NCBI RefSeq assembly: GCF_000013605.1
Contig: NC_007908.1
Coordinates: 4,526,001 to 4,590,000 of the forward strand
Source of the DNA: Rhodoferax ferrireducens T118
Lineage (GTDB): Bacteria; Pseudomonadota; Gammaproteobacteria; Burkholderiales; Burkholderiaceae_C
Length of the DNA stretch: 64,000 nucleotides
Reading direction: 5' to 3'
This document shows positions 16,264 to 34,448 of the stretch, one piece after another (the stretch's first letter is position 1; each line of letters starts with the position of its first letter). Made by a program: the position numbers and the translations under genes. The notes under the pieces were generated by a model that made no database searches, was not told the origin of the DNA, and saw nothing but the letters and a program-made list of their open reading frames with translations.

Positions 16264-18252
16264 TCAATGGCTGGAGAAGAACCCGATACCGACCAGTGTC
16301 AACAAGGTCAGGCCAATCGTGATCAGGACAAAGCCCAGCAACTTGGATGCCGCCAGCTTGGTCGGCGACGGCGCGTCCACCAGGTACTTCTCAAGTTCGC
16401 CACTGTCGAGCAGGCGCTTGTATTCCACGCCATGGTCATGCTTGAACTCTTCGAGTGAGAAGGTGCCGGTAAACATCACCACTTCCAGCGGGAACTTGTC
16501 AGGGCGGAAGTGGTTGTTGAAGAAGTGCACTGTGAACAGGAACACCACTGCAAGGAAGGCTTCTTCACCGTGGAAGATCGCCGCCACGTTAAACACCCAG
16601 CCCGGCAGGAAGGCACCAAAGAAGCCTGGCAGCCACATGATCAGGCCACTCACACCGATGATCGTGACGCCCCAGAACGGTGCCCAGTAATCGAACTTCT
16701 CCCAGTAGGTCCAGCGATCAAACACCGGGCGCGGGCCTTGGCCGAAGAACCACTTGAACATGGCGAGCATGTCTTTGCCATCCTGCAGGTTCGGCACCAT
16801 GGAGTTGGGGCCGAAGAACTTGAAGTTCTTCCAGTCGCGTGCAATGCGCACGGTGATGTAGATCAGGTGCCAGAAGAACACACCGGCAAAAATGACTGCC
16901 GCCACGCGGTGAATGATGCCTGCGGTGTGGGGTCCGCCCAGCGCACTCATGACCACCGGTGCCCAAGCCACATGCGAGTAGAACAGCGGCATACCGGTGA
17001 GGGTCAGCACCATCAAGCTCAGGGCAAAGGTCAAGTGGGCGATGCGCCAGGTGCGGCTAAAGCGCTGGACATGCTTGCCCTTAAATTGCACAGGCACCGA
17101 GTCAGGCTTGATGTGCGGCTGGCCAGCGCGTTGTTTGCGCTCCTTGTACTCGCGGAAGAACCACAGCGCTGTGTGCAACCAGAAGAAGCCAAAGGTACCT
17201 ACCAACAGCTGCACCATGATCTGCCAGGCGACCCAGATCTGCGGGTAGCGGGCAAAATCATGGCCATTGCCGTGCGGCTGGTAGCTGGCAAAGCCGGCTG
17301 GCACATCGGGCAAACCCTTCTTGGCGTTGTGACAGGTGGCGCAGGTCTTCATCCGGTTGGTCGGATAAACCATGGACTCCGGATCATTGACCCGCCGTAT
17401 CTCGTGGCTACCGTGGCAGTTGTAGCACTTGGCCGTGTAGTCGTAGCCGAGCGTACTGATTTGACCGTGGAAGGTGTCCTTGTAGGAATCGAGATTCTCC
17501 ACATGACAGTTGCCGCAATGGGATGAGACCGTCAGCTTGAAAGAGGTGCTGGCCGTGGCGCTGATGTCATGGGCAGTGTGGCAATCAGAACAAACGGCGG
17601 CTTGAGCGAGCAGCTTCTTGCTGATCTCCTTGCCATGCACGGAGCCAAGATAAGCCTCCAATTGGTCTGTGTGGCAGCTTTCACCGCAGACGGACGGGAT
17701 GCTCAAGCGCCATTGGTTGTATTGCGGAGAGTTCTTGACCGGCACATTGAAACTGTGCGTGTCGTGGCAGCTGTCGCACGCAGCATTCGGCTTGGTTTTG
17801 TCGTCCGCATTGGGGCGAGCGTGGAACGACTTGCGGTACGCCTCGATGTTTTTGGCAACGACGCCGAGCCGCGGCTGCTCGCTCTCCTTGCCGCGTTTGA
17901 CCGTCTGTTGCCACAACTCTTCGTGGCAACCGGCGCAGTCCACCTTTTTCAGAGGGAGCGCAGGGTCTTTGACGTGCGCGTTGCCTTTATCAGCGTTGTC
18001 AGCAATGTCGGTGTGGCAAGCCACGCATTGCATGTTGGCATGAACACCCTCACTAAACTTGTCGGGCGCCACGCTGCGCAGCGCACGCGCTTTGCCTTCA
18101 GCCCCCGGGACTTCAAGTTTGCCCTTCTTGCCATCGTGGCAAGTTAAACAGGTCGCGTTGTCCAGTGTCGGCTGGGCGCTGGCTGGTAAAGCCAGTAGCC
18201 CACTCGCAAGACAAACCAAGAATGCCCACAGGGCAGAACGCGCTAGTCGCAT
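16264..18252 (-). CDS. Nonaheme c-type cytochrome fused to a membrane cytochrome b domain (CbcL-like quinol oxidoreductase)
   Basis: 662 residues from the Met at 18252, which begins a signal peptide (cleavage near LPASAQP). The periplasmic part, about residues 35-330, has eight CXXCH sites and one CXXXCH (CGESCH), nine c-hemes in all. The C-terminal third has about five to six membrane segments with His residues typical of hydrogenase/formate dehydrogenase-type diheme cytochrome b (RIAHLTF, IIHRVAA, FWHLIY, FTVHFF). This architecture matches Geobacter CbcL, an inner-membrane menaquinol oxidase feeding low-potential extracellular acceptors. A longer in-frame start exists at 18339 but would put residues before the signal peptide. 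A candidate FNR-like box lies about 75 bp upstream. Confidence 0.85.
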   Translation of the reverse strand: MRLARSALWAFLVCLASGLLALPASAQPTLDNATCLTCHDGKKGKLEVPGAEGKARALRSVAPDKFSEGVHANMQCVACHTDIADNADKGNAHVKDPALPLKKVDCAGCHEELWQQTVKRGKESEQPRLGVVAKNIEAYRKSFHARPNADDKTKPNAACDSCHDTHSFNVPVKNSPQYNQWRLSIPSVCGESCHTDQLEAYLGSVHGKEISKKLLAQAAVCSDCHTAHDISATASTSFKLTVSSHCGNCHVENLDSYKDTFHGQISTLGYDYTAKCYNCHGSHEIRRVNDPESMVYPTNRMKTCATCHNAKKGLPDVPAGFASYQPHGNGHDFARYPQIWVAWQIMVQLLVGTFGFFWLHTALWFFREYKERKQRAGQPHIKPDSVPVQFKGKHVQRFSRTWRIAHLTFALSLMVLTLTGMPLFYSHVAWAPVVMSALGGPHTAGIIHRVAAVIFAGVFFWHLIYITVRIARDWKNFKFFGPNSMVPNLQDGKDMLAMFKWFFGQGPRPVFDRWTYWEKFDYWAPFWGVTIIGVSGLIMWLPGFFGAFLPGWVFNVAAIFHGEEAFLAVVFLFTVHFFNNHFRPDKFPLEVVMFTGTFSLEEFKHDHGVEYKRLLDSGELEKYLVDAPSPTKLAASKLLGFVLITIGLTLLTLVGIGFFSSH

Positions 18253-18325
18253 GTCAAAACCTTCCAAGATAAGTTGGGCGAGTGTACCTGCAACATGTCG
18301 GTTTCTTACACAGACTGACTGAGCC

Positions 18326-18339
18326 ATGACTTGGATCAA
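18326..18339 (-). promoter_or_regulatory. FNR/CRP-like box upstream of the CbcL-like gene
   Basis: On the minus strand this reads TTGATCCAAGTCAT. The first half matches the FNR half-site TTGAT, and GTCAT is close to ATCAA/GTCAA. Thirteen of fourteen bases recur upstream of the cytochrome gene at 34104-34448. Anaerobic control is inferred. Confidence 0.4.
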
Positions 18340-18505
18340 AAAACGGCATGCCGACCACCACAGATACGCGCCCTATCGCTGGCACTGGCGCTGGTGTTGG
18401 TTCCAGCTAAAAAAATGAAAGTGCGCGGCTGAAATATCCGAAGTTTGCTATCGGAGTCGCCACTCGTTGCGCGACGAAGTGGCACGGCTAGGCGAGTCGA
18501 TTTGC

Positions 18506-18754
18506 CTACAAATTAAACAGCGGAGTCAGCACGCCGCGAACGACCGTCGCTGCGACGTACACGAAAATGACAGCCGGAACAGCGGCAACAGAGGCCTTGA
18601 CCATGAACCAGAAAATGGTCATGAAACGCATGTCCAAGTCGGTCACCGTAACAGACAAGGAGCGGTCAGAATCTTCCGGCAGGGCACCACAATGGGGACA
18701 ACTGGCCGCCGTGTCGCTGATCTTGGCTTTACATTCATAGCAGTCTATTAGCAC
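18506..18754 (-). CDS. Small zinc-ribbon membrane protein
   Basis: 82 residues starting at GTG (18754), with AAAGGAAA as ribosome-binding site. The N-terminal zinc ribbon has CYEC and CPHC pairs (residues 5-23). After an acidic linker there are one or two hydrophobic segments in the last 45 residues (FMTIFWFMVKASVAAVPAV, then VYVAATVVRGVLTPLF). It lies directly downstream of the NapC-like gene and may be part of that transcript. I recognise no named family. It could sense metal or redox, or help assemble the membrane cytochromes. Confidence 0.65.
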   Translation of the reverse strand: MLIDCYECKAKISDTAASCPHCGALPEDSDRSLSVTVTDLDMRFMTIFWFMVKASVAAVPAVIFVYVAATVVRGVLTPLFNL

Positions 18755-18806
18755 GATATTTCCTTTCGTTAAGGCCAGCGGTCTTCAGGCCGCGCCTTGC
18801 ACGCTA

Positions 18807-19403
18807 TTACTTGGCAACGGCAGCCGCCTGGATTTCCTGGGGACCCGGACCATCTGGCTCTGAGTGGGCAATGCCAAAATGGCAGTCGACACAGGTAATA
18901 TTTTCGGTGCGTAGCCGCTCGTGGCGCGCCTTCGCTTTGGCCGATTGCTTGTCGGGGTCCATCTTGGCGGTTGTATGGCAATGGCGGCATTCACGTGAAT
19001 CATTTTCTTTCATGTAAACCCACACCTTCTTGGCCAACTCATAACGCTTGGCTTCGAATTTTTCTTTCGTGTCGATTGAATGCGTAACGAAGTGGCCCCA
19101 GTAGTCTCTCCAGAGACTGAACTTGGCCAGGTAGTTGGGAATGTAGCCGTGCGGAACGTGGCAGTCGTTACAGGTGGCACGCATCCCGGTGCGGTTGGTG
19201 TCATGGATGGTGCCCTTGTGCTCCTGCGCCAACTGGCCCATCTCGTGGCAGGAGGTAGCGCAGAACTTCTCGGAGTTGGCATACACCATGAATGATGCAA
19301 CGGAACCAAAAAAAACCACACCGAGAAGCAAACCAAAAATAAGCACGCCAATGGTTCCGGGACGTGAACCCCAACTGCGGAAACTGCTAAAAAATTTGGA
19401 CAT
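18807..19403 (-). CDS. NapC/NirT family tetraheme cytochrome c, copy 1
   Basis: 198 residues: an uncleaved N-terminal membrane anchor (about 17-42) followed by a periplasmic tetraheme domain. Heme sites: CATSCH (CX3CH, residues 48-53), CNDCH, CRHCH and CVDCH. NapC/CymA proteins oxidise quinol at the membrane and pass electrons to periplasmic partners, here probably the MtrA homologue and soluble monoheme cytochromes. The wider first heme site is shared with copy 2, so it is not a sequencing error. The C-terminus GPGPQEIQAAA parallels copy 2. Ribosome-binding sequence is AGGAG-like upstream of 19403. Confidence 0.9.
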   Translation of the reverse strand: MSKFFSSFRSWGSRPGTIGVLIFGLLLGVVFFGSVASFMVYANSEKFCATSCHEMGQLAQEHKGTIHDTNRTGMRATCNDCHVPHGYIPNYLAKFSLWRDYWGHFVTHSIDTKEKFEAKRYELAKKVWVYMKENDSRECRHCHTTAKMDPDKQSAKAKARHERLRTENITCVDCHFGIAHSEPDGPGPQEIQAAAVAK

Positions 19404-19472
19404 CTGACCCTACTCCTCTGATACGCGCGATGCTGATGCAACTGCGTGGAAATCGTCGTTATATTGCTTGCT

Positions 19473-20093: not shown

Positions 20094-20229
20094 GTAGCAC
20101 TCCTCAAGGAAAACACGTATCAGCGTCGCTGATGACCCACGAACAACCGCAAGAGACAACGCTCAACCGGACTCAGCCCCCGCACCGGGGCATTCAAGAC
20201 CCCGGGGGAGCCCTCAACTGGTCAGACTA

Positions 20230-20559
20230 TTAAAGCGACAAAATCCATTGCACCAGATTCTTTTGCTCGGCAACATCGCTTGATTTGACTTTGGAATGTT
20301 CTTCTTTGACACCGTCGATCTCGATCATCGGACCCGTGGTGATATGCGTAAGCAGCTTGGCTTCGGCATCGGCCTTGCCCTTGTACTTCTTGGCGACTTC
20401 CTTGTACGCCGGGCCGTCCTTCTTTTTGTCGACGGAGTGGCATTTGGTGCAGTTGCTCTTCTTCAGCAGCGCTTGCGCTGCATCTGCGTCGGGTGCGGCG
20501 TAAGCAAACGAAGCAGTCATCAAACCGCCGGCCAGAAATAATGTTGTCAGAAGCTTCAT
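20230..20559 (-). CDS. Periplasmic monoheme class I cytochrome c, copy A
   Basis: 109 residues with a signal peptide (cleavage near AYAAPD). It has one CTKCH heme site (about 37-41) and ends in the amphipathic NLVQWILSL helix typical of small class I cytochromes. Where c551-type proteins carry the axial Met, about 21 residues before the end, this protein has His (KEEHSKV). A Met does occur in GPMIEIDG, so ligation is uncertain. It belongs to a three-member set with the genes at 33330 and 34104. Likely role: soluble carrier between inner-membrane quinol dehydrogenases and MtrA. Confidence 0.88.
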   Translation of the reverse strand: MKLLTTLFLAGGLMTASFAYAAPDADAAQALLKKSNCTKCHSVDKKKDGPAYKEVAKKYKGKADAEAKLLTHITTGPMIEIDGVKEEHSKVKSSDVAEQKNLVQWILSL

Positions 20560-20716
20560 TTTGATAATCCTTCAAAGAAAAAAACGACGTGGTAATTTGC
20601 CACCCAAATGACTCTATGGCTTCGAGCGGCACAGCGGCCAAGAGCCCAAACTTGAGGTCGGATTCAATTCGTCCATTCGAAATTGCAGACCTCTTCCAGA
20701 ACTAATTTTGCTAATC

Positions 20717-20730
20717 TTGACTCAAATCGG
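20717..20730. promoter_or_regulatory. Weak FNR-like box upstream of monoheme cytochrome copy A
   Basis: TTGACTCAAATCGG fits TTGAT-N4-ATCAA at about eight of ten positions. It lies about 160 bp before the start codon, in the 257-bp gap that otherwise shows nothing. It is listed because similar boxes recur in the cluster; on its own it would not be convincing. Confidence 0.22.
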
Positions 20731-20816
20731 ACCAGGTGGCAAGTAGCCGCAACATGCCCATCATCTGCCTGTTCATTTCTGATTGAGATTGGCTACAAAT
20801 AAAGACAGGTGCCCTG

Positions 20817-21230
20817 CTATTTCTTTTTGATGTAGAGCTCCGCGTTCTTAACTGCGTCCTTGTTCGGCTGCTTGGCAATAACCTGCTGTCTCAGTCCTTC
20901 GTAAACTGCCGCGTCGATGATGTTGTGACTCACCAACCAAGCCTTGCTGCCGTAAGGTCGGCCAGCGATGATCTTGGCAGCTTGCGCGTCGCTGATGCCA
21001 GGGAGCTTTTTCAGTTCCGCAGCGCTGGCGCTGTTGATGTCAACCAGTTTGATTTTGGGCGCGACCTTGGGTTTGGCATCAGCGCCGCTCTTGACGCTTT
21101 TGGTGGTCGCCTGCGCTTTGCTGGCGGCTTGCTGCGGCGCGACAGCTTTGGTGTCTGCAGCCGTGCATACGCTGGCGGACAACAGCAGAGTGAGGGAGAT
21201 GAGGGTGGTTTTGGCGATGCTGAATTTCAT
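20817..21230 (-). CDS. Exported helix-hairpin-helix (ComEA-like) protein
   Basis: 137 residues: a signal peptide (cleavage near CTAADT), an Ala/Lys/Gln-rich linker to about residue 60, then a ComEA-type helix-hairpin-helix domain (VDINSASAAELKKLPGISDA, then AAKIIAGRPYGSKAWL). The C-terminal tail is Lys-rich (AELYIKKK). Such domains bind DNA without sequence specificity. Competence ComEA binds incoming DNA in the periplasm, but no other competence gene is nearby. Here it sits between a decaheme lipoprotein and a periplasmic cytochrome, on the same strand. A role within this locus is unknown. Confidence 0.8.
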   Translation of the reverse strand: MKFSIAKTTLISLTLLLSASVCTAADTKAVAPQQAASKAQATTKSVKSGADAKPKVAPKIKLVDINSASAAELKKLPGISDAQAAKIIAGRPYGSKAWLVSHNIIDAAVYEGLRQQVIAKQPNKDAVKNAELYIKKK

Positions 21231-21342: not shown

Positions 21343-24000
21343 TTAGTTCATGTGAACAACCTTGATGTCGGCCACCTTGCCGGTACCATGGCAGACCGTG
21401 CAGGATTCGACTTTGGCGAAGCCCTGTGAGCGGTCGGTGGTCTTGCTAACAGAAACGGCTGAAACCAAGCCGTAAATGGTGCCGCCGTTGAGTTGCATGT
21501 GCGCGACCGCTGTCTTGCTGTCGTGGCAACCGAAGCAGGACGATGTCACCGGTGATGTCACCAGATTGCCAAGCGGTAAAGTACCTGTAGTGGAATAGTT
21601 CGCCTGTCCTGCGCCCAATGTGGTAACCCATGGTGAGAGTCCGATCGAAGGAGCCGACGTAGGATTGCTCATGTCGGTCTTTGCCTCAGTGGTCCACAAC
21701 AGGTTAGGCAACGCCGCAGCATTGGCCGAGGCACTGAAGTCATAGCTACCAGCCACGTGGCACTGTTCACACTTGTTCAGCACACCAGGATAAGTAACTT
21801 CCTGGAAGCCGTTCGGGTTCGCGGCGGTTGCTTCGTAGGTGAACGCTTGTTCCCGCTTGCCTGACGCGTGGATGGAGTGAATCAGGTTCTTGCCGCTGAC
21901 TGACCAGCCACCGCCAAAATTATTCGCCGCCCCGGTATGGCCGGTCGAATTGTTGGGGGTGTGGCACATTACGCAGCCAGCGCCGTTGTTACGGGCACCG
22001 CTGTGGAAGGACGGAGCGACACCCAATTGGCCGTGGCAGCTATTGCACTTATCACCATCGACCACGGCGCGACGAGCGGTGTAACCGGTTGCAGTCATCA
22101 TGGCGAACTTGGGCTCGCGCAGGCGGATGCCCTTCGGATAGGCTGCATTGTTCAACTGAACAAAACCGTTGTAGTTGATGCCCAGGCCGGCCGTAACCAT
22201 CTTGGCGTTGTCCGGAATGATCTTGTTCACCACCACGGTGTACCAGCCATCTGCAGCGGGAGCACCTTGCGTTGCCACGATGTCGCTGACATGCACGGAT
22301 TGGCTTGCATTCCAGTCGACCACTGTGCTGCCATCCGCTGGTTGACCATCCTGCGGTACACCGTAGGCCAAATAGATGTCCGGTGTGCCGTCAACACCGG
22401 TAATCAAATTACCCGTGGTATTCAAAGTCACTGGCGCACCGTCTTTCAGGACACGGTAAACGACAGTGGCTTTTTTGGCGCCTGCGGCACCGGCAACCGT
22501 GACCGATTTGATTTCAAGACCAATCTTGTAGACACCGGCTGGCAGATTCAGTTGCGAAGCCAGCGGGATCGACGGACCTTGGCCCGACGGGAAACCGGGG
22601 GTGGGCACGTTATCTGCAGTGTTCAACGGATAACCACCACGGCCATTCGCGCCGGTCGGATCAACCGTCACGTGGTAGACCGAAGCGATCGAACTTGCGT
22701 CGTGGCAAAGTGCACACAGCTTGTCGTCAGCCTTGGCACCGCCAATGTGGTTGGCACCCGTGGCAAAGTTGACATTGTCATGGCACGAGCCGCACGCAAC
22801 CAGATTCGGGACATTCTTCCAGTTGTCGCCTTGCGCCGTCTTGTTCTTGGCCGTAGCGGAACCATCATGGCACTTGACGCAGTTGGTGATCGGTTGTGGG
22901 TAGCCGATTTCGTTGAACAGGACGTTGGCGTAGTTGTAGCCGGTCTTGGTCAACTCTTTGCCCTTATGAAGTGCGTGCACGAACATCGGGAAATTACCGA
23001 CTGCCTTGTCGTTGATCCGGTACGTGCTGCCAGAATAGCCGGTAGATGTGGTGGCTGCTTCAGCGTTGCTGTACTTGCGCTGGTCACTGTGGCAGACCAC
23101 GCAATACCGGGTGTCAACACGACCACCGCCATGAAACGCCAGCTTGCTGTGGCATTGGTTGCATGAGGCAATCGCCACAATTTCGCGCTGCGTGTCGGTG
23201 TCAGTGACGACCTTGCCGGAGGCAGGGATGAAGTCATAAATGACGTTCAGCGGGTTCTTCATGGCAACCCCTGGGGTCACCTGAACGGCATCGGCCGTGT
23301 TGGTGCCGGTTCCAGGCGCATTGCCCGAAAGCTGCAGCACCAGACGGTGGGTCAGAGTCGGATCGTAGGTCAAGTCGCCCAGGTCGGCGGCCTTGTTGGC
23401 GCCGGTCAGGGTGAGCGCCGCAACCACATCCTTGGCCTTGGTGATATCTCGGTAGAAGGTGTATTTGTAGCTACCGTCACCGTTGTCTACCAGCGTGCCG
23501 GTGTTGTCGGTGGTGGGTTTGCTGGCGGTGATAGCGGCGGTTGATGTCTCTACGGTGGTCACGTTGTAGCTGACCCACTTGCTGGGGCTGCCGTTGGCCG
23601 CTGGTACCAATTTGGCCAATGCGAACGCCAGGTTGGGATAACTTGCGAACTTTGCAGTAGCGCTCTTGGAGGTGCTACCCAGACCGATGACGGGGGCGCC
23701 AGTGGCATCAGTCACCTTGAAGCTGACGACCGGCGGGCTGGCGATGGTAACGCCAGTGACGACACCGGTAAAATTGGCATCCGCCCACTGTGCAGGCGTA
23801 AGGGCTGCGACACTGACTGTGGGAACGGCAGGTGTGCCAGCGGGGCCAGTCGCCCCGGCAGGTCCGGTCGCGCCGGCCGGGCCAGCAGCGCCATCGCTAC
23901 CACCGCAACCAGCAATGGCAGCCGCGAGCAAGCCCGCCGCAGCGAACTTGAGCCAATGCGGCCCCGCTCTTTTTTGACTTGAAAGTTCAGAATATTTCAC
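21343..24000 (-). CDS. OmcA/MtrC-family decaheme lipoprotein with collagen-like N-terminal repeat, copy 1
   Basis: 885 residues starting at GTG (24000) with AAGGAG upstream. A lipoprotein signal ends at Cys32 (AAAIAGC), so it is probably an outer-membrane surface lipoprotein. Directly after the anchor come Gly-X-Y triplets (GPAGATGPAGATGPAG). Ten CXXCH sites follow in two groups of five, each after a beta-rich domain, the OmcA/MtrC layout: CNQCH, CVVCH, CVKCH, CGSCH, CALCH, then CNSCH, CVMCH, CEQCH, CFGCH, CTVCH. The family passes electrons from the MtrAB pore to minerals or soluble acceptors. It is a paralogue of the gene at 24312, with a related leader. Confidence 0.92.
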   Translation of the reverse strand: MKYSELSSQKRAGPHWLKFAAAGLLAAAIAGCGGSDGAAGPAGATGPAGATGPAGTPAVPTVSVAALTPAQWADANFTGVVTGVTIASPPVVSFKVTDATGAPVIGLGSTSKSATAKFASYPNLAFALAKLVPAANGSPSKWVSYNVTTVETSTAAITASKPTTDNTGTLVDNGDGSYKYTFYRDITKAKDVVAALTLTGANKAADLGDLTYDPTLTHRLVLQLSGNAPGTGTNTADAVQVTPGVAMKNPLNVIYDFIPASGKVVTDTDTQREIVAIASCNQCHSKLAFHGGGRVDTRYCVVCHSDQRKYSNAEAATTSTGYSGSTYRINDKAVGNFPMFVHALHKGKELTKTGYNYANVLFNEIGYPQPITNCVKCHDGSATAKNKTAQGDNWKNVPNLVACGSCHDNVNFATGANHIGGAKADDKLCALCHDASSIASVYHVTVDPTGANGRGGYPLNTADNVPTPGFPSGQGPSIPLASQLNLPAGVYKIGLEIKSVTVAGAAGAKKATVVYRVLKDGAPVTLNTTGNLITGVDGTPDIYLAYGVPQDGQPADGSTVVDWNASQSVHVSDIVATQGAPAADGWYTVVVNKIIPDNAKMVTAGLGINYNGFVQLNNAAYPKGIRLREPKFAMMTATGYTARRAVVDGDKCNSCHGQLGVAPSFHSGARNNGAGCVMCHTPNNSTGHTGAANNFGGGWSVSGKNLIHSIHASGKREQAFTYEATAANPNGFQEVTYPGVLNKCEQCHVAGSYDFSASANAAALPNLLWTTEAKTDMSNPTSAPSIGLSPWVTTLGAGQANYSTTGTLPLGNLVTSPVTSSCFGCHDSKTAVAHMQLNGGTIYGLVSAVSVSKTTDRSQGFAKVESCTVCHGTGKVADIKVVHMN

Positions 24001-27122: not shown

Positions 27123-27234
27123 TGAGGACTCCTTAACGTTAATGCCACATTGACACATGCTTTATAAAACTTTACATGTGGAAGCGTTTGTACCATTGCA
27201 CGTGCCGTTCGTCTATCAAGGAGTGATGGGATGT

Positions 27235-27556: not shown

Positions 27557-29677
27557 CTACTTCAACAGATAGATATAAGTGACGCCGATAAAACTGACGG
27601 TTTGGTTCGGATTTTGTGTCACCGTTGTGCCGTCTGAATATGCGAACTGCGCGCCGTTATTGTCCCAAGCCCAGTCATTCACGCTAACGCGCTGGTGCAC
27701 CAGATCAACACGTACCGAAGAGCCTTTCTCTAGCTCGTACTTGCCGAACAATTTCAGCGCGGTCTGGCGATAGACCACATCTGGCAAACCCCCGCTGCTC
27801 ACGAGCGTTTGCTTGTAGACACTTTTGTCATCTACGTAGGACAGGTTGCCACCGACCAGGAGCTTGCTGGCAAGTTTGCCAGTGAAGCCAAGACCAACAC
27901 CGGTGTTCGTGTTGTCAAAAGCAATCACGTAACCAGCAGGGTGCGACTGATTCAAAGTTTGCAGGCCCTGGGACACATAGCCGTTCAAGGCCCATTTGTC
28001 AGACAACGCGTAGCCCCAATCAACGCTGAATTGATTCATGCGGGTATCGTGCAAACCGTAAGTGCTGGGCGTACTGAACTTGTCTTTACCTTCTTCAGCG
28101 CTGAACTGAAGGCTCAACTTCTCGCTGGGCTGCCAGTCGGCAAACAACTTGATCTTGTCGCGCTGGCGATCGGCCAGTGTCGGCATGAAGATGGCGCTGG
28201 ACAGGCTGGTGGCGGGGTCGGCAACCTCGGTGACTCCTGTCGCACTGCTGCTGCCCTGCAACCAGTTTGAGCCGTCACGTTTGCTGCTGGACACACTGAT
28301 CGCACCGCTCAAGTCATTTGTCAACCGGCGGCGCAGCTCTGCACGCACGCCCGTCTCCGTCGTCTCCTGGCGCAGTGGGATGAAGCCCGACACCGCACTG
28401 GTCGCGGTGAAGGCGCCGCGATCAATGGATTCGTAGTCTGCACCCAGGGTGCCGCGATAGTCACTGGTGAATTGCCAGCTGGCCTGCAGCTTGCCCTTGA
28501 TCTTCTTGCTGGAAAGATCGCGGTTGGTGGCGGACACGGCAGTTGCACCCGCACCAGCGACGTTGTAGTTGGCAAGCGGCGTCTGGTCGTCCTTGTCTTC
28601 ATAGCGCAGATCGGCCAGCAACGAGAGCTTGGGTATCGGGCGCGAGGTAATACCAATTTTGGCCATCGTCGTATTCACCTGAGCACCAAGATTCGCGACG
28701 CCTGCAGGGCCAATCAGACCGGCGCCGGCAAAGTCAGCGTTCTGTGTGGCTTGGGCGTAACCCAGCTTAAATGAGCCGTGTGTGGTGCCGGTGAAGTCGT
28801 AGCTGCCACTCAGGTCGAGTTGATGCGCCTGGTTGTCTGGCGCCAGAGCCAGTGAATTCAGCACTGGCGTGGTGGTGCTGGCGAAGCCACCCAAATTCGG
28901 CTGAAGCGCGGCGTTGTCATTGCGGTAGAACGAGCCATAGTAGCCGACGCTGAAACGCAGCTTTTCCAACGCATAACTCAAGCGGGCTTCGACCTGACTG
29001 TGGTTGGCGTTGATGGGCTCGGGCAGCATCAGCACGCCAGAACCCAGCGCGGTGTTGCACGACCCCGTGATCAGGGGGGAGCAGATCTGGCCGAGACCGA
29101 ACAGCCGCGCACCCTCTTTATTTTCGGTCTTCAGATCGACTGCAAATTGAAGCCTTGGCGAGATGATCTTGGTGAACCCGAGCCCCAGGCTGGTTCGCTT
29201 GGTCTTCAAGTCAAGTTCGGCCCCCGTACCTTGAGGCACAACGACCACCTGCGGTGTCGTCGAACCGGCGCCAAGCAGGCCGGTATTAACCCTATTTGGA
29301 TCGTAGTGAACCAACTCACCATAGTCGGCGGTGAACTTCCAGCTACCCGGATTCTTCCAGACCAAGCCCAGCTCACGCGTGTCGCCCAGCAGGTTCGAAC
29401 CCGTAAATTGGACCCAGCTAGAGGTCTCTGGTTTGCGCAGGCTGTAGTCGATGTCCAGCATGCCGACGGCGCTTTGATCGCGCAAACCGTTGTATTGGCG
29501 AAACAGCGCCCGGTCGGCGTTGGAGCCGTCGACCGCGCCGAGGCCAACACTTATCGTGGTTTGTGCGGCGCTGGCAGCGTCATCCTCGGCCTGGGCCTGA
29601 ACGGGGGCGAAAGCGGCACACACTGCCAAGGCAAGCGCGGTGCGCTGAAAGCGAAATGATGTAACGATACTGGTCAT
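27557..29677 (-). CDS. mtrB: MtrB/PioB family outer-membrane beta-barrel protein
   Basis: 706 residues: a signal peptide (cleavage near VQAQAED), then a long run of alternating amphipathic strands ending in an aromatic-hydrophobic strand (FIGVTYIYLLK), as in large porins. The N-terminal GLGAVDGSNADRALFRQYNGL segment is typical of decaheme-associated MtrB/PioB proteins, and the length matches MtrB (about 700). The barrel sheaths MtrA and lets its heme chain cross the outer membrane. The N-terminal CXXC seen in Shewanella MtrB is not apparent. It begins 16 bp after the mtrA-type gene, so the two are almost certainly co-transcribed. Confidence 0.9.
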   Translation of the reverse strand: MTSIVTSFRFQRTALALAVCAAFAPVQAQAEDDAASAAQTTISVGLGAVDGSNADRALFRQYNGLRDQSAVGMLDIDYSLRKPETSSWVQFTGSNLLGDTRELGLVWKNPGSWKFTADYGELVHYDPNRVNTGLLGAGSTTPQVVVVPQGTGAELDLKTKRTSLGLGFTKIISPRLQFAVDLKTENKEGARLFGLGQICSPLITGSCNTALGSGVLMLPEPINANHSQVEARLSYALEKLRFSVGYYGSFYRNDNAALQPNLGGFASTTTPVLNSLALAPDNQAHQLDLSGSYDFTGTTHGSFKLGYAQATQNADFAGAGLIGPAGVANLGAQVNTTMAKIGITSRPIPKLSLLADLRYEDKDDQTPLANYNVAGAGATAVSATNRDLSSKKIKGKLQASWQFTSDYRGTLGADYESIDRGAFTATSAVSGFIPLRQETTETGVRAELRRRLTNDLSGAISVSSSKRDGSNWLQGSSSATGVTEVADPATSLSSAIFMPTLADRQRDKIKLFADWQPSEKLSLQFSAEEGKDKFSTPSTYGLHDTRMNQFSVDWGYALSDKWALNGYVSQGLQTLNQSHPAGYVIAFDNTNTGVGLGFTGKLASKLLVGGNLSYVDDKSVYKQTLVSSGGLPDVVYRQTALKLFGKYELEKGSSVRVDLVHQRVSVNDWAWDNNGAQFAYSDGTTVTQNPNQTVSFIGVTYIYLLK

Positions 29678-29693
29678 GATTGCTCTCCGTACA

Positions 29694-30617
29694 TCAGCGC
29701 ATCAAGAGCTGTGGGGTCGGGTTGGTGGTCGACGGATTATTGGAACCGTGAACCTGCGTGTGGCAGTTCAGGCAGCTACGGCCCTGCCAGATGGTGACAG
29801 AGTTCTGGCTGCGAGTGGCGCTCGTGAGCTGGCCAGGAATCGGGCCATCGCCGGTTTGGGCGTGCGGCGTGTGGCATTGCTGGCACAGCAAGGGCGGACG
29901 GGCCTTGAGCATGGACGCAACGGTTGTACCGTGAGCATTGTGGCAGTTGGAGCAGTCTTCGGTGACGGGTTCATGCGAATGCACGAACGGGCCGCGCTTT
30001 TCGGCGTGGCAGGTGTAGCAGGTGTCGTTGATACTGTCGCGCTTGACCAGCTTGGGGCCGGCCGATCCATGCGGGTTATGACAATCCGAGCAGCTCATTT
30101 TGCCCTCTGGCACCGGGTGGTGCGAAGGCCGGTTCATCTGTGTGCGTTGCTCCTTGTGGCAGGTGTAGCAGACATCGGTTTGGGTGGCCTTGGACAGCAC
30201 CTTGTCGCTGTTGGCATGGATCTTGTGGCAGGAATTGCAGGCAACGTCAGCGGCATCGTGCTGGCTGCCGCCCCACAACGCGCGCTTGGCGTCCTTGTTG
30301 TGGCAGGTCAGGCAGGCCGCGTTGCGCTCGCTCGCAGGCGTGGTCGACTTCTTGGTGAACATCCGGTCGGGATGGGGCCGCTCGGCGACGCCGGCTGGCT
30401 TCTTGGCATGGGTCGGACTCGGGCCGTGGCAGCTGATGCAATCCGGCGCGCGTTTGTCAGCGGTGAAGCCGTGCGCGGACCTGCTCATGTCTGGCAGGTC
30501 TTCTTCGTCGTGACAGGTCACGCACAACGCCGCCCCGACGGGCTCGGCGCTCCAGGCTGAACCGAGCAACCCGAACAAACTGAGGCCAACGACGGCCATT
30601 AAACGCTTAATTCGCAT
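29694..30617 (-). CDS. mtrA: MtrA/DmsE family decaheme periplasmic cytochrome c
   Basis: 307 residues from the Met at 30617, preceded by AAGGGG; a GTG 33 bases earlier is possible. The signal peptide ends near SAWSAEP. There are ten CXXCH sites in a compact protein, as in MtrA (about 33 kDa): CVTCH, CISCH, CLTCH, CNSCH, CYTCH, CSDCH, CYTCH, CSNCH, CQQCH and CLNCH. MtrA forms the heme wire threading MtrB from periplasm to surface. CHNPHGS and CHNAHGT repeats show the internal pentaheme duplication. Its position just ahead of mtrB supports the assignment. Confidence 0.92.
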   Translation of the reverse strand: MRIKRLMAVVGLSLFGLLGSAWSAEPVGAALCVTCHDEEDLPDMSRSAHGFTADKRAPDCISCHGPSPTHAKKPAGVAERPHPDRMFTKKSTTPASERNAACLTCHNKDAKRALWGGSQHDAADVACNSCHKIHANSDKVLSKATQTDVCYTCHKEQRTQMNRPSHHPVPEGKMSCSDCHNPHGSAGPKLVKRDSINDTCYTCHAEKRGPFVHSHEPVTEDCSNCHNAHGTTVASMLKARPPLLCQQCHTPHAQTGDGPIPGQLTSATRSQNSVTIWQGRSCLNCHTQVHGSNNPSTTNPTPQLLMR

Positions 30618-30676
30618 CCCAAACCCCTTCAAAAACTTGCTCTGACTCACGACACTGCGCCGAAGGTCCTAACGAT

Positions 30677-30715
30677 CAAAACAGCAGGAGAAGCTTGTGA
30701 CAAGCCTCTCCTGCT
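30677..30715 (-). terminator. Intrinsic terminator after decaheme gene 30721-33201
   Basis: AGCAGGAGA at 30683-30691 pairs with TCTCCTGCT at 30707-30715. An inner GCTTG/CAAGC stem and a three-base loop complete the hairpin. GUUUUGA follows on the minus strand. It lies six bases past the decaheme stop, so mtrA-mtrB is expected to have its own promoter or depend on read-through. Confidence 0.75.
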
Positions 30716-30720
30716 CATGG

Positions 30721-33201
30721 CTATTTCTGACCGTGGACGGTGTCCACGCTCTTGACGCCGCCGCTCGCATGGCAATCGTCGCAGGACTCGCGCGGCATGG
30801 CAACGGCTGCTTGCGACTTGTCGCCGAACGTTGCACCACCAAATTTGGTGACGTGCGCGATGGCCGCGTTAGAGTCGTGACAGGACGTGCAGGTGGCCGC
30901 CTTGGGCGAGATAACCTTCCAGAGGTTCGGATCTGTCACGCCGGCGTCCTTCTGAACGACAGCACCCAGCGTGCCCATATCGGTCTTGTAGGAGTTGTTC
31001 ACGTGGCAGGCGTTGCAGTTGAGCGTAGCGTCTGGATAGGCAACCTCAGCGGCATAGTTTTCAACATCAGTCGCAAACGTCAGGGTGCCATCGCAAGCAG
31101 CTTTGGCAATGTCGCTGGTATTGGCGGGGTTGCAGAATGCTCCGACCACCTTGTTGCCATGCGTGAACGGATAAATGCGCTTGGAGTTGCCATGGATGCC
31201 GTGGATCATGCGCTTGAACTGGTAGGACTCATTGAGCGCCATGCCATTGGTCATGATGGTTGAGGACATCCGGTTCGCGTCATGGCAGACCACACAGGCT
31301 TCAACGGTGTTGCGGGCACCTCCGTGGAAGGCATTGGCGAGCGTATTCGATCCGGAAGTGGTCCCCAGCGCGCCGTGGCAAACGTTGCACTTGTCATTGG
31401 AGACAACGGTGCGGCGCGGCAGCAAGGCACCCGTCAGCGCGAGTTCCTTGTAGGCGTGCTGCACCACCGTGTTCACCAGCACCGTTGGCACCACCTCGGG
31501 CCGAGGATTGGTCCCGGACGTCGCTGCCAGCATGTGTTCCTTGACCTGCCCAATACTGACGACGCGGGCCGTGCCTTTCGCAACCGCAGTGGCGGTGTCG
31601 TCGGGGACGGGAATGCTCACCGTATAGTGGTTGCTGCCGTCATTGGTGCCCTGGTACGCGTAGGCATTGGCGCTACTGCCGCCATTGTTGTAGGCCGAGA
31701 ACTCGGTCGTGCCATCTGACTGGCCAACCATATTCTGGAAGGCGAGATAGAAGCGGAGGTTGCCGAACTTGGTCGTGTTGGCACAAGCGATGGCGGGGGC
31801 AGTGCCGGTGCATTCCGACGTCACCAGGTTGTACGCAGCATTACCATTCGTGGGATCTGAGAGGAAGTACTCGACGGTCACGCTACGGGTTTTGTGGTCA
31901 GCCGTATCGTTAAAGGCGACGCTCTCAATGTTCATCTTGTACTTGGCGGCATTCACCTCGACCTGGTTAAAGTGCACGCTTTCTGCAGAGACAACCGAGC
32001 CCGCGCTATGACAATTGGCGCACTGCTGGTTCGTTAACGCGTTGGCTTGCGCCCCGGCCCCGACGAGGGTACCGGCAATGAGCTTATGGCTGATTTCCCA
32101 AGCCGATCCCACATTGCTGACGTGACAGGTCAGGCATGCCTCCTTGCTCGGCTTCGTCTTCCAGTTGTCACCCTGCGGGGTCTTGGGGTTGGCACCGGAA
32201 TGGCACACCGTGCAGTTGCGCAGGTCTTGCGGAAAACCGACATCGGCGTAGCTGTTCATGCTGTTTTGGTAGCCCCAGATTGTGTAGTCCTCGCCCGCGG
32301 CCATTAGCCGCTTGCCAGCGTGGATCTTGTGGACCATGGTGGCCAGATTCAGGACGTTGCCACTGTTGGCGTCGGTGGTGCCGGGGTTGTGGCACATCAC
32401 GCAGAACTGCGTGTCGACGCGTCCGCCACCATGCAAGGCCAGCTTGCCGTGGCAATTGTTACAGGACGCGACGTCTGTCATCTTGCGGGTTTTGGCCGGG
32501 TCAGTCACCGGGACAGACTTGCCATCGGCACCGATGGTGAAGTCGAAGTAAGGGTTGACCAGAACCGTCTCACCCTTGGCATTCTTGTAGCTCAGCTGGA
32601 TGGCGACGCGATGCGTCAACGCGGGCTCGAAGACCACCCCATTGGTCTGGGCGACGTCCTTGATGTCGGTCTTGAAGGTGTAGGTGTAATAGCCGTCGGC
32701 GTTGTAAACCAACTGGGCTGCCAGCAGTGCAGCGTCGGTTTGCTTGCCGTCGGTTGTGGCCTGCATGGCTGTAGCGAGCACAGGCGCACCGGGCGTCCCC
32801 GGGCCGACCCCAGCTGTTGCAGTCTCTTTGCGATAGATGTAATTCACCCACTGGTCCGGGTTGCCATTGGCACCGGGCACAAGCTTGGCAATGGCAAAGC
32901 TCACGTTGGTGATGACCAAACCGGTTTTGACCGCGCCGTCAGAAAACACCGTGAAGTTGACCTTGGGCGGGCTGTTGACTGTGACGACCGGTACACCGGC
33001 TGCCTGCACCGCAGTGAAGGGCGCAGCGGAATTTATCGCCGTGTCGTTGGCCGCTAATGCGCTCGCCGTTGCGATGGCGCTATTGACCGCGGCTGAAGAC
33101 GGCGGCTGCACATTGCCCCCATCACCGCCACCACCACCGCAACCGGCCATGGCAACCACCACCGAGCAAGCCATGCCCCATCGTACTAATAATTGTTTCA
33201 T
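30721..33201 (-). CDS. OmcA/MtrC-family decaheme lipoprotein, copy 3
   Basis: 826 residues. The lipobox is VAMAGC with Cys21, followed by a Gly-rich stretch (GGGGGDGG) but no collagen-like triplets, unlike the other two copies. Ten CXXCH sites: CNNCH, CVMCH, CTVCH, CLTCH, CANCH, CNVCH, CVVCH, CNACH, CTSCH, CDDCH. It is expected on the outer-membrane surface. It lies just ahead of mtrA-mtrB on the same strand, behind a terminator. It is more diverged from the 21343 and 24312 copies than they are from each other, judged by the N-terminus and by an insert around SECTGTAPAIACANTTKF. Confidence 0.92.
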   Translation of the reverse strand: MKQLLVRWGMACSVVVAMAGCGGGGGDGGNVQPPSSAAVNSAIATASALAANDTAINSAAPFTAVQAAGVPVVTVNSPPKVNFTVFSDGAVKTGLVITNVSFAIAKLVPGANGNPDQWVNYIYRKETATAGVGPGTPGAPVLATAMQATTDGKQTDAALLAAQLVYNADGYYTYTFKTDIKDVAQTNGVVFEPALTHRVAIQLSYKNAKGETVLVNPYFDFTIGADGKSVPVTDPAKTRKMTDVASCNNCHGKLALHGGGRVDTQFCVMCHNPGTTDANSGNVLNLATMVHKIHAGKRLMAAGEDYTIWGYQNSMNSYADVGFPQDLRNCTVCHSGANPKTPQGDNWKTKPSKEACLTCHVSNVGSAWEISHKLIAGTLVGAGAQANALTNQQCANCHSAGSVVSAESVHFNQVEVNAAKYKMNIESVAFNDTADHKTRSVTVEYFLSDPTNGNAAYNLVTSECTGTAPAIACANTTKFGNLRFYLAFQNMVGQSDGTTEFSAYNNGGSSANAYAYQGTNDGSNHYTVSIPVPDDTATAVAKGTARVVSIGQVKEHMLAATSGTNPRPEVVPTVLVNTVVQHAYKELALTGALLPRRTVVSNDKCNVCHGALGTTSGSNTLANAFHGGARNTVEACVVCHDANRMSSTIMTNGMALNESYQFKRMIHGIHGNSKRIYPFTHGNKVVGAFCNPANTSDIAKAACDGTLTFATDVENYAAEVAYPDATLNCNACHVNNSYKTDMGTLGAVVQKDAGVTDPNLWKVISPKAATCTSCHDSNAAIAHVTKFGGATFGDKSQAAVAMPRESCDDCHASGGVKSVDTVHGQK

Positions 33202-33329
33202 TTTTTCTCCGTCGGTTGCCCTATAAACGGTATCGCACGACCCGTTGGAAGCTGTTTAAACGGCACTGCCGCTTCTCTGCGATTCAATCTCGCCAAACAT
33301 TCTTGTATTTTTGTAAAGTGGGGCAGATG

Positions 33330-33938
33330 TTACTGCGAAAGAATCCAATCAGACAGATTCTTCAGTTCTTTCTGATCCTTGGTATCGATGATCTTGTGCT
33401 CTTCCTCGCTACCGTCGTCAAGCTTGATCTTGGGTGCGGTCGTAATATTCGTGATGACTTTTTCTTGACCATCAGCCTTGCCCCTGTACTTGGCTGCAAT
33501 CTTTTGCAGGGATGGACCTGTTTTGCTTTTATCAACCGAATGGCACTTGTTGCAACTATTTCGCTTGAACAATGCTTGTGCCGCATCGGCATCCGCAGGT
33601 ACAGCAGTAGGTACAGCAGTAGGTACAGCAGTAGGTACAGCAGTAGGTACAGCAGTAGGTACAGCAGTAGGTACAGCAGTAGGTACAGCAGTAGGTACAG
33701 CAGTAGGTACAGCAGTGGGTACAGCGGCGGTGACTTTGGCGGCGGTTGTTGCGGCAGCGGCATCGGCGGCTTTGGCGGCGGTCTTTGCGGCGGCATCATT
33801 TGCCGTCACTGCGTTAGCACTCACGGCAACGGGCGAAGATGCAGGCCTCTCACTGCTGCCAACATTGCTATCGCTGCAGCCCGCTGCTGAAGCCAACACC
33901 AGCCAGACTGCGGCCGATTGAACCGACAAGTGCTTCAT
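33330..33938 (-). CDS. Monoheme cytochrome c lipoprotein on a TAVP-repeat linker, copy B
   Basis: 202 residues in three parts. A lipoprotein signal ends at Cys21 (ASAAGC). A low-complexity Ala/Thr/Val/Pro linker to about residue 110 contains ten AVP units in a row, encoded by a 12-bp tandem repeat. A class I cytochrome c domain follows, with one CNKCH, nearly the same as copy C (34104). The axial-Met position is His (EEEHKII). The design suggests a membrane-tethered heme domain on an extended arm reaching across the periplasm, or out from the surface. No Met follows the heme site. Confidence 0.88.
   Translation of the reverse strand: MKHLSVQSAAVWLVLASAAGCSDSNVGSSERPASSPVAVSANAVTANDAAAKTAAKAADAAAATTAAKVTAAVPTAVPTAVPTAVPTAVPTAVPTAVPTAVPTAVPTAVPTAVPADADAAQALFKRNSCNKCHSVDKSKTGPSLQKIAAKYRGKADGQEKVITNITTAPKIKLDDGSEEEHKIIDTKDQKELKNLSDWILSQ
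33598..33729. repeat. 12-bp tandem repeat (GGTACAGCAGTA), nine exact units plus two variants
   Basis: Nine identical 12-bp units run from 33598 to 33705. A tenth unit has one change and an eleventh is degenerate. The array is in frame inside the lipoprotein cytochrome gene and encodes TAVP. Because 12 is a multiple of 3, gain or loss of units changes linker length without breaking the frame. Confidence 0.95.
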
Positions 33939-33967
33939 TTTTTCTCCATCATGTTCCCGTAAAACGA

Positions 33968-34002
33968 CATAACGCTAACCGCTGTAAGCGATTAGCGTTA
34001 TG
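33968..34002 (-). terminator. Strong intercistronic hairpin between two monoheme cytochrome genes
   Basis: CATAACGCTAA at 33968-33978 pairs with TTAGCGTTATG at 33992-34002. A further CGCT/AGCG pair inside gives about 15 bp with one mismatch and a three-base loop. On the minus strand it follows gene 34104 and precedes gene 33330. The U-tract is poor (GUCGUUUUACG), so partial termination or mRNA stabilisation is likely. Confidence 0.6.
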
Positions 34003-34103
34003 GATCCGTCTTCTTCAGTAGTGATTGATTTTTTCCGGATCAACCCCTGCCGTCGAAAGATTTACTCGTCCGATGATCGACCCGATCACGGGACCAAGAA
34101 GGG

Positions 34104-34448
34104 TTACTGCGAGAGAATCCAGTCGGCCACATTCTTGAGCGCGGCTGGGTCTTTGGAGTCAATGATCTTGTGCTCTTCTTCAGAGCCATCGTCAAGCTTG
34201 ACCTTGGGTCCCGTCGTTATGTTCTTGATGACTTTTTCCTGGCCGTCCGCTTTGCCTTTGTACTTGGCCGCGATCTTCTTCAAAGACGGACCTTTTTTGG
34301 TTTTATCAACTGAATGGCACTTGGTGCAATCATTCTTCTTGAAAAGTGCTTGCGCGGCGTCGGCGTCAACGGCGGCATGAGCCGGGGCCACACTGGCAAA
34401 TGCCAACATAAGCGACGCACTGACGATGGTGAGAGTGGATTTAAACAT
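34104..34448 (-). CDS. Periplasmic monoheme class I cytochrome c, copy C
   Basis: 114 residues with a signal peptide (cleavage near APAHAAVD) and one CTKCH. The fold signature is class I: GPSLKKIAAKYKGK after the heme, and a NVADWILSQ C-terminal helix. There is no Met at all after the heme site. His in EEEHKII sits where the axial Met normally is, so bis-His, low-potential ligation is predicted. Apart from the anchor and linker it is the close twin of the 33330 protein, pointing to recent duplication. It is the first gene of the minus-strand cluster and has an FNR-like box about 110 bp upstream. Confidence 0.9.
   Translation of the reverse strand: MFKSTLTIVSASLMLAFASVAPAHAAVDADAAQALFKKNDCTKCHSVDKTKKGPSLKKIAAKYKGKADGQEKVIKNITTGPKVKLDDGSEEEHKIIDSKDPAALKNVADWILSQ

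What the first reader, a model, noticed from the sequence alone, without database searches (positions are those of the whole stretch)
16264..34448. Complete quinone-to-surface electron conduit with three decaheme lipoproteins
The sequence shows, on one strand: a nonaheme/cytochrome b quinol oxidoreductase, two NapC-type tetraheme proteins, three monoheme carriers, MtrA, MtrB and three OmcA/MtrC-type lipoproteins with ten CXXCH each. Together they encode more than 60 c-type hemes. Shewanella-type (CymA/Mtr) and Geobacter-type (CbcL-like) inner-membrane entry points occurring together is unusual and suggests electron exit at more than one redox potential.
Basis: partly seen in the sequence, partly recalled or inferred. 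Interest (0 to 1): 0.8.

Follow-up and report, generated by a model that had tools for sequence, protein, structure and literature searches.

The report
Iron-breathing wire and its quinone
The region encodes an already described set of heme proteins through which a soil bacterium can pass electrons out of the cell; what looks new is that many related bacteria keep the gene for the unusual electron carrier rhodoquinone beside such genes, which suggests what may feed the wire.

Summary
In detail: one strand (16264-34448) encodes an MtrH/MtoC/CbcL-type nonaheme cytochrome b, two NapC-type tetrahemes, three MtoD-like monohemes, MtrA, MtrB and three OmcA/MtrC decahemes, with exactly 60 c-heme motifs (57 CXXCH, 3 CX3CH), plus a secreted helix-hairpin-helix gene that was missed. 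The genome fits Rhodoferax ferrireducens T118, and this cluster, its CX3CH motifs and the idea of several acceptors are already in print (Zhong & Shi 2018, PMC6295460). What I did not find in print concerns the quinol. T118 shows neither menaquinone marker tested, but encodes RquA, which makes rhodoquinone. Among 299 family genomes 14 of 20 with rquA also have mtrB, against 11 of 279 without; in 9 of the 20 rquA lies within 10 kb of mtrB or mtrH (0.12 expected) and in 4 more of napC. In T118 itself it is 0.74 Mb away, and fumarate-reductase genes share half of the linked sites. The two 'CymAs' are a tandem pair that travels with its own monoheme. Best reading: an outward Mtr conduit fed by ubiquinol and/or rhodoquinol; untested.

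The parts
34104..34448 (-). mono1: MtoD-like monoheme c, predicted secreted
   Evidence: 1 CXXCH; best PDB hit 4xxl, the MtoD structure, 5.7e-33; a monoheme gene lies within 1.5 kb of mtrH in 49 of 80 named loci
33330..33938 (-). mono2: predicted lipoprotein monoheme c on an (AVPT)n linker; repeat DNA at 33597-33725
   Evidence: one relative (L058) has a lipobox-like start and a Pro/Ala-rich linker without this repeat
30721..33201 (-). mtrC1: OmcA/MtrC-type decaheme, predicted lipoprotein
   Evidence: 10 CXXCH; TIGR03507 731 bits vs 209; PDB MtrF, OmcA, UndA, MtrC hits
29694..30617 (-). mtrA decaheme (probable start 30617; open frame to 30650)
   Evidence: 10 CXXCH; TIGR03508 315 bits vs 192; PDB 6r2q_A 4.3e-71
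27557..29677 (-). mtrB outer-membrane barrel, the only match in the genome
   Evidence: PF11854 574.7 bits; TIGR03509 709 bits vs 240; single hit in genome
24312..27158 (-). mtrC2: decaheme lipoprotein with a collagen-like Gly-X-Y run after the lipobox
   Evidence: 10 CXXCH; PF22113 156 bits
21343..24000 (-). mtrC3: decaheme lipoprotein with a collagen-like run
   Evidence: 10 CXXCH; TIGR03507 793 bits vs 209
20817..21230 (-). secreted helix-hairpin-helix protein (HHH_3; weak ComEA and PsbU matches), neighbour of mtrC2/3-type decahemes in relatives
20230..20559 (-). mono3: MtoD-like monoheme c that travels with the NapC pair
   Evidence: upstream of tetA in 11 of 12 pair loci, the twelfth at a contig edge
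19473..20093 (-). tetA: NapC/NirT tetraheme (CX3CH + 3 CXXCH)
   Evidence: PF03264 213.9 bits; clade of 17 rows at 100/99
18807..19403 (-). tetB: NapC/NirT tetraheme (CX3CH + 3 CXXCH), directly after tetA
   Evidence: PF03264 212.6 bits; clade of 15 rows at 100/99
16264..18252 (-). mtrH (MtrH/MtoC/CbcL family): 9-heme part plus membrane cytochrome b part
   Evidence: 8 CXXCH + 1 CX3CH; PF14522, PF22113; PF01292 only 25.2 bits, below its 30.1 cut-off; no PDB relative at E 0.01; named MtrH in PMC6295460
15518..16105 (+). neighbour: flavodoxin-type gene (hemG); not part of the conduit
   Evidence: PF12724; hemG in the vicinity of mtrCAB of T118 noted in PMC8805035

Best explanation
This is the published Mtr-type electron conduit of Rhodoferax ferrireducens T118, working mainly outward. 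Quinol in the inner membrane is oxidised by two kinds of gate: a tandem NapC pair (tetA/tetB, probably acting together) and the 9-heme/cytochrome-b protein MtrH. MtoD-like monoheme carriers take the electrons across the periplasm to a single MtrA/MtrB pore, and three OmcA/MtrC lipoproteins, two of them with collagen-like runs, spread them outside. My addition is that the quinol is not menaquinol: the pool is ubiquinone plus rhodoquinone made by RquA. Rhodoquinol, about 160 mV lower than ubiquinol, probably supplies at least one gate. Shown: the genes, the absence of two menaquinone markers, the presence of RquA, and the linkage of rquA to such gates in relatives. Inferred: complex formation, direction, and which quinol each gate uses.
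For: Gene content and families; PDB relatives for MtrA, MtrB, mtrC1 and the monohemes; T118 passes electrons to Fe(III) and electrodes. T118: MenD best 62 bits vs cut-off 244, while 7 of 14 control genomes pass it; futalosine family PF02621 none, 4 of 14 controls positive; UbiE 400 vs 378 and RquA 318.6 vs 175 bits; no FrdC. Family, 299 genomes: rquA over cut-off in 20, mtrB in 25, both in 14; Fisher p = 3.6e-13; by genus 11 of 15 vs 7 of 126, p = 4.8e-9. rquA within 10 kb of mtrB or mtrH in 9 of 20 rquA genomes (0.12 expected), and of napC alone in 4 more; together 13 genomes, 14 of 21 copies, 0.21 expected. Examples: mono1-mtrH-mtrC1-mtrA-mtrB-rquA (G091, G133), rquA-mono3-napC-mtrA-mtrB (G034), mtrH-rquA 11 bp apart in Rhodoferax lacus (L068). 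13 of 80 named mtrH loci carry rquA in the fetched 10 kb. PMC6529003 states that R. ferrireducens produces rhodoquinone. The ~160 mV shift is from PMC13386864.
Against: In T118 itself rquA is 0.74 Mb from the cluster, and 7 of 20 rquA genomes show no linkage. 11 of 25 mtrB genomes have no rquA over the cut-off (one of them, G166, has a fragment at a contig edge). Four of the 13 linked genomes are linked only through napC, a gene type with other uses: rquA also goes with NapC in general (14 of 20 vs 32 of 279, p = 1.2e-8). In 7 of the 14 linked copies frd fumarate-reductase genes are also within 10 kb. The tests ignore kinship of the genomes. No expression, quinone or mutant data were available. 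T118 was reported not to reduce solid Fe(III) minerals (PMC8552755 passage), so the role of its surface decahemes is unproven.
Confidence: 0.6

Rival explanations
1. The rquA link is a by-product of fumarate respiration: rquA and frdABCD form one unit that happens to sit in the same anaerobic island, and the Mtr gates use ubiquinol only.
For: frdABCD lies between mtrH and rquA in L050, L051, L052, L054, L055, L061, L067, L122 and G251; frd genes are within 10 kb in 7 of the 14 heme-linked copies of the 299-genome draw. PMC13386864 couples RQ to fumarate reduction.
Against: The other 7 of 14 linked copies have no frd gene within 10 kb in the stretches read. Four named loci (L068, L076, L077, L081) have mtrH and rquA 11-85 bp apart without frd in the stretch held; L076 and L077 are short contigs. 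T118 keeps rquA but has no FrdC; other kinds of fumarate reductase were not searched.
Confidence: 0.3
2. Inward route: as in Mto systems the set takes electrons from Fe(II) or Mn(II) and reduces quinone, MtrH or NapC acting as quinone reductase.
For: The monohemes are MtoD-like. Relatives include Ramlibacter lithotrophicus (L071, strain RBP-1; strain RBP-2 expresses mtrCAB on Mn(II) in coculture, PMC8805035). Rhodoferax MIZ03 oxidises Fe(II).
Against: T118 passes electrons to Fe(III) and electrodes and is not autotrophic. ImoA of an Fe(II) oxidiser oxidised quinol in vivo. PMC6295460 found no feature that tells direction.
Confidence: 0.15
3. One reading: NapC-type and CbcL-type gates work at different acceptor potentials, as CbcL and ImcH do in Geobacter.
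For: Two gate types in one cluster; Zhong & Shi propose different acceptors for T118. A ubiquinone plus rhodoquinone pool would supply two donor potentials.
Against: In Geobacter the split is CbcL versus ImcH; no ImcH-type gene is in this cluster. Each gate occurs in genomes without the other: 6 of 16 mtrH genomes have no NapC hit (G007, G017, G050 among them), 36 of 46 NapC genomes no mtrH, so both need not serve one division of labour.
Confidence: 0.35
4. The two NapC proteins are alternative gates for different quinols (Zhong & Shi), not a pair.
For: They are only 53% identical (55.5%), and both keep the Lys and Asp that align with Lys and Asp of NrfH; that these form the quinol site is recalled.
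Against: In 12 of 12 loci with the CX3CH tetA a tetB follows directly (one tetB cut by a contig end); the split predates Rhodoferax, Ramlibacter and a Rhodocyclales MAG.
Confidence: 0.25

Closest known systems
mtr cluster of Rhodoferax ferrireducens T118 (Zhong & Shi 2018, citing Shi et al. 2012)
   Same: By description the same organism and cluster: two cymA homologs with CX3CH, mtrH, mtrABC and other c-cytochromes
   Different: Its text holds no 'rhodoquin' and 'menaquin' only in references; the tandem pair and its travel with mono3 were not in the passages and two sections that I read
MtrCAB-CymA of Shewanella
   Same: MtrA, MtrB and MtrC/OmcA homologs; NapC/NirT entry
   Different: Entry heme I is CX3CH and the gene is a tandem pair; neither menaquinone marker found; MtrH and MtoD-like carriers are in the cluster
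Mto pathway of Sideroxydans lithotrophicus ES-1 (MtoA, MtoB, ImoA, MtoD, PmcA)
   Same: MtoD-like monohemes, NapC/NirT entry, MtrA/B homologs
   Different: Three MtrC/OmcA decahemes, CX3CH pair and MtrH here; host reduces Fe(III)
CbcL of Geobacter
   Same: Nonaheme part plus b-type cytochrome part
   Different: 35.7% identity per PMC6295460; encoded here with Mtr parts
RquA of Rhodospirillum rubrum
   Same: T118 has a protein over the curated RquA cut-off
   Different: In many relatives the gene lies inside or beside mtr, mtrH or napC gene sets

Membership tests
MtrCAB conduit | decaheme MtrA | tested here: met
   10 CXXCH, TIGR03508 315 vs 192 bits, 6r2q_A 4.3e-71
MtrCAB conduit | MtrB/PioB barrel beside mtrA | tested here: met
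   TIGR03509 709 vs 240 bits, 6r2q_B 4.3e-12
MtrCAB conduit | decaheme lipoprotein of the OmcA/MtrC family | tested here: met
   10 CXXCH each; TIGR03507 over cut-off for the two of three scanned; lipobox patterns
MtrCAB conduit | surface location and an assembled complex that conducts electrons | not testable with these tools
   needs biochemistry
CymA | NapC/NirT tetraheme domain | tested here: met
   PF03264 213 and 214 bits; but below the TIGR02161 cut-off, 188 and 193 vs 311
CymA | heme I motif with CXXCH spacing | tested here: not met
   CX3CH-X-M in both, as in both members of all 12 pair loci; in none of 14 NapC genes without a tandem partner
CymA | menaquinone as cofactor | tested here: not met
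   no MenD over cut-off and no futalosine family in the genome; other men genes not searched, and quinones not measured
CbcL/MtrH/MtoC | multiheme N-terminal half plus membrane cytochrome b | tested here: inconclusive
   9 heme motifs; cytochrome b part only weakly matched, PF01292 25.2 vs 30.1 and TIGR01583 29.8 vs 115.9; helices not predicted here; published as MtrH
MtoD | class I monoheme with bis-His ligation | tested here: inconclusive
   best PDB hit 4xxl for mono1 and mono3 (mono2 not searched); the distal His is kept in the alignment, but ligation is not shown and most mono3-type rows also keep a Met
RquA rhodoquinone synthase | NF038261 equivalog over cut-off | tested here: met
   318.6 vs 175 bits in T118
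RquA rhodoquinone synthase | makes rhodoquinone in T118 | not testable with these tools
   PMC6529003 says so, citing a 1984 and a 2003 paper that I did not see

The most novel reading that the evidence does not exclude
In the Burkholderiales family of T118, Mtr-type extracellular respiration runs on rhodoquinol in place of menaquinol. rquA is a recurrent part of mtr, mtrH and napC gene sets, in several different arrangements, and the CX3CH NapC pair and/or MtrH are rhodoquinol dehydrogenases. A ubiquinone plus rhodoquinone pool would then be what lets one conduit work at two potentials.
Probability: 0.45. Interest if true: 0.75.

Novelty: new variant of a known kind. Interest (0 to 1): 0.5.

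Why it matters
The cluster itself is known. What feeds it is not addressed in what I read: T118 shows neither menaquinone marker tested, and menaquinone is the quinol that CymA is described as needing. If rhodoquinol is the donor, a quinone coupled so far to fumarate reduction gains a second role, the lower limit of acceptor potential for these iron and electrode respirers is set by one small enzyme, and rquA becomes a simple handle on microbial current. It is testable in T118 with one deletion and a quinone profile.

Tried and rejected
FNR-like sites (TTGATNNNNATCAA, one mismatch) do not mark the cluster or the rquA locus: 2 in the window against 0.94 by chance, neither in the cluster, and 1 in the rquA region against 0.29, not near rquA. 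Sigma-70-like sites: 3 against 6.8 in shuffles, uninformative. Terminator-like sites: 26 against 20.9 in all; four long stems (at 34002, 30715, 21320 and 16163) suggest breaks within the array, but this is weak.

Rejected: separate outer-membrane exits per potential, since one MtrB match serves the genome. Rejected: 'CymA' as a strict name. Considered: the helix-hairpin-helix gene as DNA binding (ComEA-like, 25 bits) or PsbU-like (23 bits); both far below cut-off, left open. An HhH gene after a Group-4 type mtrC was already seen in two genomes by Baker et al.. tetA found no PDB relative at E 0.001, tetB only NrfH, mtrH none. Not used: structure prediction, covariance models, phage and plasmid collections.

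Papers, what I saw: PMC6295460 found passages and sections 9 and 11; PMC2755013 found passages and section 10; PMC8552755 part 1 of 3 and found passages; PMC8805035, PMC13390432, PMC9600427, PMC4412085, PMC6529003, PMC5953543, PMC11707229, PMC9814641 and PMC13386864 found passages only. Searches behind 'not found in print': rhodoquinol + extracellular electron transfer, 0 papers; rhodoquinone + extracellular electron transfer, 3 papers, seen only in the listing and by title off topic; word finds in PMC6295460, PMC8805035, PMC11707229 and PMC13386864. The library lacks most subscription papers. Shi et al. 2012 was not read, only cited through PMC6295460.
Full report
What is there. The window is G000:C2:4526001-4590000 of a two-contig genome of 4,969,784 bases; contig 2 has 4,712,337 bases. 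From recall these sizes are those of Rhodoferax ferrireducens T118; no call names the genome. The published description of T118 fits in detail: two cymA homologs with CX3CH motifs, mtrH and mtrABC in one cluster, and hemG near mtrCAB (here 15518-16105). From 34448 down to 16264 on the minus strand lie mono1, mono2 (lipoprotein), mtrC1, mtrA, mtrB, mtrC2, mtrC3, a helix-hairpin-helix gene, mono3, tetA, tetB and mtrH. The c-heme motifs are 57 CXXCH and 3 CX3CH, 60 in all. Family matches are far over curated cut-offs for MtrA, MtrB and the two decahemes scanned. PDB relatives are the MtrCAB complex 6r2q, MtrF, OmcA, UndA and MtoD 4xxl. MtrB has one match in the genome, so the three decahemes of the cluster, and a fourth elsewhere, have one pore between them.

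What is already known. Zhong & Shi 2018 (PMC6295460; passages and sections 9 and 11 seen) state that R. ferrireducens has two cymA genes and mtrH in a cluster with mtrABC and other c-cytochromes, report the CX3CH motifs, and suggest that the gates may serve different acceptors. Modular travel of mtr accessory genes, mtoC and mtoD near mtrCAB, and an HhH gene after a Group-4 mtrC in two genomes are in Baker et al. 2022.

Modules in relatives. I searched 299 genomes drawn from the family. mtrH was found in 16 (E 1e-30), mtrC3-type decahemes in 9 (1e-60), NapC-type in 46 (1e-20), the HhH protein in 13 (1e-8) and MtrB in 25 (1e-20). The collection of named genomes gave 80 mtrH loci, the best of 584 relatives in a capped list and many cut by contig ends. 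The core mono1 / mtrC1 / mtrA / mtrB / mtrH recurs. In the same-genus genome G121 mtrB and mtrH are neighbours, while T118 has mtrC2, mtrC3, HhH, mono3, tetA and tetB between them. In G251 an mtrC3-HhH part sits there, and mono3-tetA-tetB lies about 7.5 kb beyond mono1 on the other strand. tetA with CX3CH was seen in 12 loci (T118, G251 and ten named); tetB follows directly in 12 of 12 (one cut off) and mono3 precedes in 11 of 12 (one at a contig edge). A tree of 49 NapC rows (37 from loci, 12 of the proteins) puts all 35 CX3CH rows together (100/99), with 15 tetB rows one clade (100/99) and 17 tetA rows another (100/99). Three further CX3CH proteins, labelled A by my pattern, branch outside both, so label A needs two changes; their neighbours are unknown. 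The 14 NapC rows without a partner form the other side. Both members keep the Lys and Asp that align with those of NrfH; their role in quinol binding is recalled. I read the two 'CymAs' as an old, jointly kept pair with its own carrier, not two independent gates.

The quinone question. CymA is described as menaquinone-specific (title of a reference). In T118 MenD has no match over its cut-off (62 vs 244 bits; 7 of 14 control genomes pass) and the futalosine family has none (4 of 14 controls positive). I tested 7 of the 31 methyltransferase matches against NCBIfam, picked by eye: one is RquA (318.6 vs 175 bits), one is UbiE (400 vs 378), one is an RquA-like paralogue below cut-off (115.7), and four passed no cut-off shown. 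PMC6529003 calls R. ferrireducens a rhodoquinone producer and lists rquA among gene groups shared with it, on older citations that I did not see. RQ lies about 160 mV below UQ; UQ is given as +100 mV and MK as -80 mV, so RQ near -60 mV is my inference. FrdC, a subunit of the classical fumarate reductase, has no match in T118 (E. coli control positive); other fumarate reductases were not searched, and T118 grows by fumarate dismutation.

rquA goes with the conduit. rquA is over its cut-off in 20 of 299 genomes and mtrB is in 25; 14 have both, against 11 of the 279 genomes without rquA (p = 3.6e-13). By genus it is 11 of 15 against 7 of 126 (p = 4.8e-9), with 10 genera having both in one genome. 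These tests ignore deeper kinship, and rquA also goes with NapC (14 of 20 vs 32 of 279, p = 1.2e-8) and with mtrH (11 of 20 vs 5 of 279, p = 1.8e-11). By position, 9 of the 20 genomes have rquA within 10 kb of mtrB or mtrH (G017, G034, G050, G091, G133, G143, G199, G227, G251; 0.12 expected for random places) and 4 more within 10 kb of napC only (G121, G173, G210, G211); together 13 genomes and 14 of 21 copies, 0.21 expected. Arrangements differ: after mtrB in G091, G133, G143, G227 and G199; before mono3-napC-mtrA-mtrB in G034; after mtrH in G050, L068 (Rhodoferax lacus), L076, L077 and L081; beside mono3-napC without mtr in the stretch read in G210, G121 and a second copy of G199. That argues for repeated association. 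13 of 80 named mtrH loci carry rquA; six of these I scanned against the RquA family, five pass and one, cut by the end of its stretch, does not (146 vs 175); the other seven rest on similarity to the T118 protein. Against: T118 (0.74 Mb apart), G007, G061 (separate contig), G026, G126, G153 and G228 are unlinked, and 11 of 25 mtrB genomes lack rquA over the cut-off. frd genes lie within 10 kb in 7 of the 14 linked copies and not in the other 7. In T118 rquA converges on lpxC, as in L051, where mtrH-frdABCD-rquA-lpxC are in a row. T118 therefore looks like a rearranged descendant of such a layout; this is inference.

Mechanism. Best reading: outward flow from ubiquinol and/or rhodoquinol through MtrH and the NapC pair, to MtoD-like carriers, to MtrAB and the decahemes. 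The three monohemes keep the His aligned with the distal ligand of MtoD; most mono3-type rows also keep a Met, so ligation is open. I give 0.6 to the whole reading, higher for the conduit alone, and 0.45 to rhodoquinol as the true donor. Direction cannot be told from sequence, and relatives include metal oxidisers. T118 is reported to reduce dissolved but not solid Fe(III).

Verdict. The cluster is real and already known. The new and testable part is the rhodoquinone connection and the jointly kept CX3CH NapC pair.

Noticed in passing
L048:15252-18089 (G000:C2:1845251-1848088): A fourth OmcA/MtrC-type decaheme lipoprotein with a collagen-like run (945 aa), no mtrA/mtrB or HhH match in the 40 kb read, between a histidine kinase/LytTR regulator-like pair and a phosphoenolpyruvate carboxylase-like gene on the other strand (names from reading the frames, not from a family search).
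   Followed up: partly
20817-21230: Helix-hairpin-helix gene: 9 of 9 family genomes with an mtrC3-type hit have it beside such a decaheme, and 11 of 13 HhH genomes have a decaheme next to it; the orphan decaheme of T118 lacks it.
   Followed up: partly
33597-33725: 12-bp repeat, 10.8 copies, 99% matches, giving an (AVPT)n linker in a lipoprotein monoheme; a relative (L058) has a different Pro/Ala-rich linker. A possible tether for a carrier heme.
   Followed up: partly
24312-27158 and 21343-24000: Collagen-like Gly-X-Y runs of at least 5 triplets near the N-terminus: 6 of 7 mtrC2-type, 9 of 17 mtrC3-type rows (the orphan counted twice, some N-termini incomplete), 0 of 16 mtrC1-type.
   Followed up: partly
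18506-18754: Small open frame between tetB and mtrH whose reading suggests a zinc-ribbon-like start and a membrane segment; not tested in relatives.
   Followed up: no
36381-39936 (+) and 35681-36283 (-): NiFe hydrogenase small subunit, Fe-S protein and NrfD genes on the other strand, and a HupE/UreJ gene, upstream of the cluster.
   Followed up: no
G000:C2:2370240-2370872: RquA-like paralogue, 116 bits against a cut-off of 175; similar below-cut-off matches occur in several relatives.
   Followed up: no
protein P0105: NapC sequence that reads as tetA-type at the N-terminus and tetB-type at the C-terminus: recombination between the tandem genes, or an assembly artefact.
   Followed up: no
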